Of a stretch of 64,000 bases of DNA, positions 52,190 through 52,401 are shown piece after piece. This DNA is from an uncultured Carboxylicivirga sp. (GTDB lineage Bacteria; Bacteroidota; Bacteroidia; Bacteroidales; Marinilabiliaceae). Made by a program: the position numbers and the translations under genes. The notes below the pieces were generated by a model, which had not been told where the DNA came from, made no database searches, and saw only the letters and a program-made list of their open reading frames with translations. The DNA is taken from positions 1,302,001 to 1,366,000 of the forward strand of contig NZ_OY764327.1 of assembly GCF_963668385.1 (NCBI RefSeq), given 5' to 3'. Within the stretch, counting starts at the first letter, position 1. Every line of letters starts with the position of its first letter.

Positions 52190-52294
52190 ATGAATATAAA
52201 TAAAAACCATAGTAATACTTTCCGATCAGGTGATTTTTCTTCACCTGCAACAACTTCTTATACCATGATGATGTGTATGATGATGACAATGTAA
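52190..52294 (+). CDS. Methionine-rich leader peptide of the metY attenuator
   Basis: A 34-codon frame from ATG 52190 to TAA 52292-52294. The last nine residues are MMMCMMMTM: seven Met and one Cys, the two sulfur amino acids, at codons 26-34. Leader peptides of biosynthetic operons carry runs of codons for the end product, so this fits a sensor of charged tRNA-Met. A 7-bp hairpin CAGGTGA/TCACCTG (52227-52247) inside the frame could act as a pause site. The stop codon lies 7 nt before the antiterminator segment. The frame is too short for normal gene prediction. Confidence 0.75.
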   Translation: MNINKNHSNTFRSGDFSSPATTSYTMMMCMMMTM

Positions 52295-52301
52295 TTGTCT
52301 C

Positions 52302-52373
52302 AACGCATCGTATCTGAAAATCAACAAAGACATATAAAACAGACCGATGCGTTAAGCATCGGAAAATAGTTTT
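52302..52373 (+). promoter_or_regulatory. Attenuator: mutually exclusive antiterminator and terminator hairpins upstream of metY
   Basis: Segment 1, AACGCATCG (52302-52310), is the exact reverse complement of CGATGCGTT (52345-52353). The latter overlaps segment 2, CCGATGC (52344-52350), which also pairs with segment 3, GCATCGG (52356-52362), around loop GTTAA. Segment 2 can thus join 1 or 3 but not both. The 2:3 hairpin is followed by AAAATAG and then a T-run (52369-52373). Ribosomes stalled on the Met codons would leave segment 1 free (1:2, read-through); ribosomes reaching the stop would cover it (2:3, termination). The T-run is not directly abutting, so the stop may be inefficient, or the hairpin may act on translation. 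Confidence 0.7.
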
Positions 52374-52401
52374 TGAGTATTAACCATAAATATTAAATAC
52401 A

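What the first reader, a model, noticed from the sequence alone, without database searches (positions are those of the whole stretch)
52190..52401. Candidate ribosome-mediated methionine attenuator upstream of metY
A 34-codon leader ORF ends in MMMCMMMTM. Eight nt after its stop begins a 9-nt segment (52302-52310) that is the exact complement of 52345-52353, and the latter also builds a 7-bp hairpin (52344-52362) just upstream of metY. The geometry fits the classical logic: stalling at Met codons leaves segment 1 free to form the antiterminator, while completion of translation covers it and allows the 2:3 hairpin. A 7-bp hairpin inside the leader ORF (52227-52247) could be the pause site. Known from established knowledge: ribosome attenuation controls trp, his, leu, thr and phe operons. 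I am not aware of a well-described Met-codon version, so this may be a new regulatory element in Bacteroidota. Weak point: the T-run is six bases past the hairpin rather than directly on it.
Basis: partly seen in the sequence, partly recalled or inferred. Interest (0 to 1): 0.87.

Follow-up and report, generated by a model that had tools for sequence, protein, structure and literature searches.

The report
Methionine-codon attenuator upstream of metY
Just ahead of a methionine-making gene, the message encodes a tiny peptide packed with methionine codons, and comparison with relatives indicates that a ribosome pausing there for lack of methionine refolds the RNA, probably switching the gene on; it is an old trick used for an amino acid and a bacterial group where it is barely described.

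Summary
A 34-codon ORF ending MMMCMMMTM* precedes metY, followed by mutually exclusive RNA pairings. The post-stop RNA recurs strongly in 35 of 71 family genomes, and all 41 elements collected precede metY. The antiterminator-like helix covaries. In a ribosome-edge scan the structure flips where a terminating ribosome would end: full switch in 35 of 37 loci against 41 of 296 shuffles. I add a Met-codon protector pairing and support for the pause hairpin (22 of 37 loci). Masking of the ribosome site is not supported. Among 169 metY upstreams, 67 carry Met/Cys-rich small ORFs (reverse-complement control 6); some have intrinsic terminators, two carry tandem leaders, others combine with SAM-I riboswitches. 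The mechanism is known in kind; a Met leader was proposed in Streptomyces.

The parts
52172..52179 (+). TTTATTTG, resembling the Bacteroidota -7 box (TAnnTTTG, recalled; one base differs), 10 nt before the leader ATG
   Evidence: Sequence. TTTATTTG, TAnnTTTG or TTAATTTG lies within 32 nt upstream of the leader ATG in 17 of 29 loci with an ATG start, among them 14 of 14 of the window's genus; 8 further loci had no ATG start in range and were not counted. It implies a very short or absent 5' UTR (inference).
52190..52294 (+). Leader ORF, 34 codons
   Evidence: leaders in relatives.
52227..52247 (+). In-ORF 7-bp hairpin, candidate pause hairpin
   Evidence: z -4.28; the corresponding region folds better than dinucleotide shuffles at p<=0.05 in 22 of 37 loci, mean z -1.9.
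52265..52291 (+). Regulatory codons ATG ATG ATG TGT ATG ATG ATG ACA ATG
52270..52276 (+). Segment A, GATGTGT, can pair with ACGCATC 52303-52309 (protector)
   Evidence: A:B duplex stronger than shuffled B at p<=0.05 in 27 of 37 loci; hardly lineage-specific in the swap test.
52285..52299 (+). Small hairpin GACAA/TTGTC with the stop codon in its loop
   Evidence: Sequence; in the window's genus native -7.1 vs swapped -3.9 kcal/mol, but no difference in the Marinilabilia-like (-3.3 vs -3.7) or Saccharicrinis-like (-3.3 vs -3.2) clusters.
52302..52316 (+).
52340..52353 (+).
   Evidence: Covariation score 0.262 vs 0.163 shuffled (0 of 500) and at most 0.092 when slid; B against the whole following 90 nt: own -20.0, other clusters -15.2, shuffled -8.7 kcal/mol.
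52356..52362 (+).
   Evidence: Sequence; C:D dominates in 36 of 37 loci when the ribosome edge is at +15 or +18 from the stop codon.
52370..52374 (+). TTTTT, 7 nt past the hairpin; terminator role unproven
   Evidence: TTTTT 4-34 nt after C in 13 of 37 loci vs 3.6 expected by shuffling; 8 of 8 in the Marinilabilia-like cluster, 2 of 14 in the window's genus, 1 of 8 Saccharicrinis-like, 2 of 7 others.
52402..53697 (+). metY, O-acetylhomoserine aminocarboxypropyltransferase
   Evidence: NCBIfam TIGR01326 675.7 bits, cut-off 495.1; Pfam PF01053.

Best explanation
This is a ribosome-mediated attenuator that senses charged Met-tRNA (perhaps also Cys-tRNA). The leader ORF is translated as it is made; the in-ORF hairpin probably pauses RNA polymerase so that the ribosome keeps up. 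If Met-tRNA is short, the ribosome stalls in the Met run, covering segment A; segment B pairs with C; C cannot pair with D, and metY is expressed. If Met-tRNA is plentiful, the ribosome reaches the stop codon, its leading edge covers the start of B, C pairs with D and metY expression falls. Without translation, A tends to hold B and C:D can form again. Shown here by computation: the ORF, the conserved Met run, the alternative pairings, B:C covariation, the switch position. Inferred: transcription, translation, stalling, amino-acid response, and that C:D lowers transcription (termination or pausing); how it does so without an adjacent U-tract is open.
For: Conserved Met run. B:C covariation. 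Ribosome-edge scan: B:C ahead of C:D in 36 of 37 loci for edges -9 to +9 from the stop codon, 19 of 37 at +12, 1 of 37 at +15; full switch in 35 of 37 real loci against 41 of 296 shuffles in which C was redefined as the best partner. Pause hairpin. A model of the post-stop RNA without the Met codons finds 35 strong hits in 71 family genomes; 41 of 41 elements collected have metY downstream. The four weak hits that I fetched lack a Met run. Outside this family, 14 Met/Cys leader units in 12 loci, picked by script and by eye, have an intrinsic terminator 22-32 nt after the leader stop, 6 of the 14 with an antiterminator duplex at p<=0.02.
Against: No adjacent U-tract in the window, and TTTTT nearby in only 2 of 14 loci of its genus. 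C:D usually carries a mismatch or bulge outside the window (by eye). A:B is hardly lineage-specific (native -14.0, swapped -13.2). For stalls early in the run the preference weakens: B:C ahead in 31-33 of 37 loci for edges -21 to -15 and 22 of 37 at -24. Without a ribosome the states are mixed on average (A:B 8.6, B:C 5.2, C:D 5.4 pairs), and the static fold of the whole window leader shows B:C, with D paired to early leader RNA. The 37 loci were collected by having the element (model R1 or a Met-run leader), so they are not a blind sample. In the phylum set 8 of 14 antiterminator duplexes miss p<=0.02, and intrinsic terminators are not commoner with a Met/Cys leader (12 of 67) than without (25 of 102). 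Methionine shortage would also lower initiator fMet-tRNA, which could blunt leader translation (established knowledge). No expression data.
Confidence: 0.82

Rival explanations
1. Same sensing logic, but the output is translational: one of the structures hides the metY ribosome binding site.
For: No U-tract at the hairpin in most loci of the genus; mycobacterial cysteine genes are cited as regulated by translation attenuation (passage in PMC13236596).
Against: Mean unpaired probability around the metY start is 0.50 with a stalled ribosome and 0.52 with a ribosome at the stop, 37 loci; single loci go either way, and in L035, L049, L050 and L111 the script took a start other than the evident metY start. 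C:D ends 39 nt before the metY ATG in the window.
Confidence: 0.1
2. Stalling controls Rho-dependent termination or RNA polymerase pausing rather than intrinsic termination (a variant of the best explanation, concerning only its last step).
For: Leader peptides without obvious terminators are known in Actinobacteria, where Rho was proposed (PMC1262725, passages); the window's C:D hairpin lacks an adjacent U-tract.
Against: Not tested; the loop between B and C is A-rich, not clearly C-rich, in the window's genus (by eye). Leaders in other families of the phylum have ordinary intrinsic terminators.
Confidence: 0.35
3. A metabolite riboswitch (SAM-type) rather than a codon sensor.
For: metY often lies behind a SAM-I type riboswitch in the phylum: 56 of 69 sampled loci.
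Against: No Rfam match above threshold at this leader; the Met run and the stop-codon-tuned switch point to a ribosome.
Confidence: 0.03
4. The ORF encodes a functional Met/Cys-rich metal-binding small peptide.
For: MMMCMMM could bind soft metals (inference).
Against: Positions outside the Met run vary widely; the RNA downstream is tuned to the stop codon; no Pfam or NCBIfam match.
Confidence: 0.03

Closest known systems
trp/his/leu/thr/phe-type ribosome-mediated transcription attenuators
   Same: Leader ORF with a run of the regulatory codon, pause hairpin, protector, antiterminator, competing hairpin (family features recalled).
   Different: Met codons; Bacteroidota; competing hairpin without an adjacent U-tract in the window and most loci of its genus.
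Streptomyces lividans metL leader before metNIQ (PMC8079986, passages)
   Same: Met-containing leader peptide before a methionine gene, no typical Rho-independent terminator noted.
   Different: Transporter operon; Met codons scattered among Cys and Arg; no comparative structure in the passages seen.
Mycobacterial poly-cysteine leaderless short ORFs (Canestrari 2020; title seen in a reference list; paper not held) and the predicted cys leaders of PMC1262725 (passages)
   Same: Sulfur amino-acid codon runs near the stop codon; no obvious terminator.
   Different: Cys rather than mainly Met; a different phylum; no conserved terminator-like hairpins reported in the passages.
SAM-I riboswitch (RF00162)
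   Same: Found upstream of metY in many loci of the phylum.
   Different: Senses SAM directly; not matched in this leader.
Leader-peptide attenuation in Flavobacterium psychrophilum amino-acid operons (PMC9723704, one section and passages)
   Same: Same phylum, same general mechanism proposed.
   Different: The word methionine does not occur in its main text; its supplements were not seen.

Membership tests
Classical ribosome-mediated transcription attenuator | Short leader ORF directly upstream of a biosynthetic gene | tested here: met
Classical ribosome-mediated transcription attenuator | Run of codons for the pathway's amino acid near the ORF end | tested here: met
   202 of 444 codons ATG in the last 12, 37 loci.
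Classical ribosome-mediated transcription attenuator | Mutually exclusive pairings switched by ribosome position | tested here: met
   By computation only.
Classical ribosome-mediated transcription attenuator | Terminator hairpin immediately followed by a U-tract | tested here: not met
   7-nt spacer in the window; no + strand terminator; TTTTT nearby in 13 of 37 loci. So it is described as working like an attenuator, not filed as a classical member.
Classical ribosome-mediated transcription attenuator | Pause hairpin in the leader ORF | tested here: met
   Met in the window; 22 of 37 loci at p<=0.05.
Classical ribosome-mediated transcription attenuator | Leader transcribed and translated; response to the amino acid | not testable with these tools
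   No RNA-seq, profiling or reporter data.
SAM-I riboswitch | RF00162 aptamer in the leader | tested here: not met
   the genome's one RF00162 match lies elsewhere, at 799711-799807.

The most novel reading that the evidence does not exclude
Bacteroidota carry a phylum-wide, undescribed class of sulfur-amino-acid attenuators on metY, with Met, Cys or mixed codon runs. It includes two-in-a-row attenuators, attenuator-then-SAM-I pairs, and a compound form in which a SAM-I aptamer ends only 6-9 nt before the start of a Cys/Met-run leader ORF, so that SAM could gate translation of the codon sensor itself. In the window's genus the form works without an intrinsic terminator.
Probability: 0.4. Interest if true: 0.82.

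Novelty: new variant of a known kind. Interest (0 to 1): 0.72.

Why it matters
Methionine is an awkward amino acid to sense by codon stalling, because shortage also hits initiation, and I found Met-codon attenuation described only once, in Streptomyces (searches listed in Tried and rejected). A covarying family in Bacteroidota, placed on a gene where other members of the phylum use SAM-I or both, makes that question testable and gives a ready comparison of tRNA-charge sensing and SAM sensing on the same gene.

Tried and rejected
Rejected: chance Met run (shuffle and reverse-complement controls); an Rfam family; ribosome-site masking. Led nowhere: the RNA model beyond the family (2 of 295 class genomes at E<=0.01, one being the window); four fetched weak hits without a Met run (L173-L176; other weak hits were not looked at); the A:B swap test.

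Paper searches that listed no Bacteroidota Met leader: (open-licence PubMed Central only; of the papers listed I looked into seven: PMC9723704, PMC4833913, PMC7366714, PMC2965389, PMC8079986, PMC13236596 and PMC10272879, plus PMC1262725 taken from a reference list; passages only, and one section of PMC9723704). The 2010 Lopatovskaya survey of attenuators was seen only as a citation.

Limits of the counts. The 100 and 69 loci contain near relatives, and some of the 100 are the same species as loci, so they are not independent. In one search the upstream region of L198 was cut wrongly; rechecked, it has no Met/Cys-rich ORF, so 21 of 69 stands. Left out before the 37-locus counts: L166 (same leader as L095), L096 and L099 (duplicates of L167, L168), L098, L115 and L165 (near duplicates); near-identical L037 and L042 were both kept. 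L012 was left out of the 24 elements when the model was built (23 rows). The swap test located C by its pairing with its own B, which favours the native pairs; one search repeats it without that bias. The control kept fixed places and so was too easy; redefines C in each shuffle.

Full report
What is there. The window holds a 34-codon ORF (52190-52294) ending MMMCMMMTM*, then AACGCATCG (52302-52310), its exact complement 52345-52353, and the hairpin 52344-52362; metY starts at 52402. MetY is an O-acetylhomoserine aminocarboxypropyltransferase (TIGR01326). The T-run is 7 nt past the hairpin. The window's genus holds Carboxylicivirga marina and other Carboxylicivirga: contigs of the same length and place appear under names (inference). 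I call the 14 loci of that genus the Carboxylicivirga cluster; the Marinilabilia-like cluster (8 loci) and Saccharicrinis-like cluster (8 loci) each span more than one genus or name.

Conservation. A MetY match was found in 58 of 60 related genomes. Of the 30 metY loci fetched there (the window included), 23 show a Met-rich small ORF by script and one more, L026, by its RNA motif; L017, L018, L020, L027, L029 and L030 show none. All 14 of the window's genus have it. Ends vary from MMMCMMMT plus one residue in most of the genus to MMMGRMSMA or MMMGRMSMFMA in the Marinilabilia-like cluster, MMCRMMMT in the Saccharicrinis-like cluster and MRMSMRR in L058 (L058 lies in G021, whose contig has the length of an Alkaliflexus imshenetskii contig). 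A covariance model of the post-stop RNA alone, without the Met codons, was built from 23 loci and matches those by construction. It hits 25 of 60 relatives, 37 of 71 family genomes at E<=0.1 of which 35 at E<=2.4e-5, and 2 of 295 class genomes, one being the window. All 41 elements that I collected, near duplicates included, have metY downstream. Four weak hits that I fetched have no Met run.

Pairings. On 34 distinct sequences aligned to the model, 88.7% of B:C cells pair, 29 cells show double changes (9.0 in shuffles), and the covariation score is 0.262 against 0.163 in shuffles (0 of 500) and at most 0.092 when slid; the numbers of covarying pairs and of pair types did not beat the shuffles clearly (61 and 58 of 500). 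The alignment was fitted to the model, which leans towards it. Without an alignment, B against the whole following 90 nt gives -20.0 kcal/mol in its own locus, -15.2 in loci of other clusters and -8.7 in shuffled sequence, 37 loci (the first version gave -20.0 and -14.4 but was biased). The Met codons can pair with B: A:B averages -14.0 against -7.5 with shuffled B, p<=0.05 in 27 of 37, but swapped partners do nearly as well (-13.2), so this pairing is mostly generic to AUG runs. A pause-like hairpin inside the ORF folds better than shuffles in 22 of 37 loci.

Switch. I folded each leader with everything behind a moving ribosome edge removed. B:C exceeds C:D in 36 of 37 loci for edges from -9 to +9 relative to the first base of the stop codon, in 19 of 37 at +12, and in 1 of 37 at +15; upstream it weakens, to 31-33 of 37 for -21 to -15 and 18 of 37 at -30. 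A ribosome with the stop codon in its A site should reach about +12 or +13 (recalled). The full pattern (B:C at -9 and +9, C:D at +15) occurs in 35 of 37 real loci and in 41 of 296 shuffles with C redefined. With a ribosome on a Met codon B:C holds 13-14 pairs and C:D under 1; with an edge at stop+14 they hold 1.4 and 7.8, at stop+11 8.3 and 3.3 (means). Without a ribosome the picture is mixed, and the static fold of the whole window leader shows B:C with D paired upstream. The 37 loci were chosen for having the element, so this shows consistency, not frequency.

Output. The window's hairpin has no adjacent U-tract and the scan gives no + strand terminator. TTTTT lies 4-34 nt after C in 13 of 37 loci (3.6 expected): 8 of 8 Marinilabilia-like but 2 of 14 Carboxylicivirga. 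Accessibility around the metY start does not change on average (0.50 vs 0.52; the script chose another start in four loci). I therefore think a transcriptional output (pausing, unusual or Rho-dependent termination) most likely, but it is not shown.

Beyond the family. In 169 metY upstream regions (100, including many of the family; 69, drawn from the phylum), 67 carry a small ORF with at least 4 Met/Cys codons in 8; reverse complements give 6, and mononucleotide shuffles 0-4 of 100 and 0-2 of 69. They include Met types, mixed (MMCMCMMMRM, L222; MHCCMMCMCMSC, L217) and Cys types (CCCCCCCC, L147, a Microscillaceae record). A mechanical scan finds an intrinsic terminator downstream in 12 of the 67, but also somewhere in the region in 25 of the 102 without such an ORF; of those 25, 20 were scanned next and 18 hold SAM-I. 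Fourteen leader units in 12 loci, picked from that scan and by eye (L222 and the first unit of L235 were seen), have a terminator 22-32 nt after the leader stop, and in 6 of 14 a nearby segment pairs with the terminator's first arm at p<=0.02. L222 and L079 each have two leader-terminator units in a row.

With SAM-I. All 69 phylum-sampled loci were scanned with Rfam: 56 hold a SAM-I type riboswitch, 55 RF00162 and 1 RF01725; in L185, L194 and L197 it lies more than 700 nt before metY and may serve another gene. Of the 21 with a Met/Cys ORF, 16 also hold SAM-I; the ORF of L197 looks like chance. In L202, L214, L235, L241 and L242 the leader and its terminator come first and SAM-I second. In L181, L182, L183, L186, L187, L188, L189, L190, L191 and L147 the aptamer ends 6-9 nt before the leader start (L196 was not measured because its longest reading starts inside the aptamer). 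In the window's family 15 of 71 genomes have SAM-I; in the window's genome it precedes an ORF that reads like an aspartokinase (by eye).

Known or new. The mechanism is classical in kind. A Met leader peptide was proposed before metNIQ in S. lividans (passages of PMC8079986), Cys leaders in Actinobacteria (passages of PMC1262725), and leader attenuation in F. psychrophilum (one section of PMC9723704). Ten paper searches listed no Bacteroidota Met leader; the library holds open-licence papers only, and I saw passages of eight papers, so prior description elsewhere is possible.

Noticed in passing
L181, L182, L183, L186-L191, L147 (metY upstreams): SAM-I aptamer ends 6-9 nt before the start codon of a Cys/Met-rich leader ORF; possibly SAM gates translation of the codon sensor.
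   Followed up: partly
L222, L079: Two Met/Cys leader-plus-terminator units in tandem upstream of metY.
   Followed up: partly
L202, L214, L235, L241, L242: Met/Cys leader with terminator followed by a SAM-I riboswitch, upstream of metY.
   Followed up: partly
L051, L055, L100, L111, L162, L164, L170, L171: Leaders of the Saccharicrinis-like cluster have no ATG start 60-130 nt before the stop; the frames suggest GTG or TTG starts.
   Followed up: no
L165: About 90 extra nt lie between the element and metY compared with its near twin L164.
   Followed up: no
window 52219-52226 with 52358-52366: TTTCCGAT near the leader start can pair with sequence over segment D in the static fold; relevance unknown.
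   Followed up: no
L034-L047, about 20 nt before the metY ATG: TTAACCATAAA is nearly invariant between segment D and metY; several loci also have GGTTAA after D that could pair with it.
   Followed up: no
window 53700-53790: Inverted repeat (TTATGGAACGG ... CCGTTCCATAA) with a T-rich end after metY, before a homoserine dehydrogenase gene; looks like the metY terminator.
   Followed up: no
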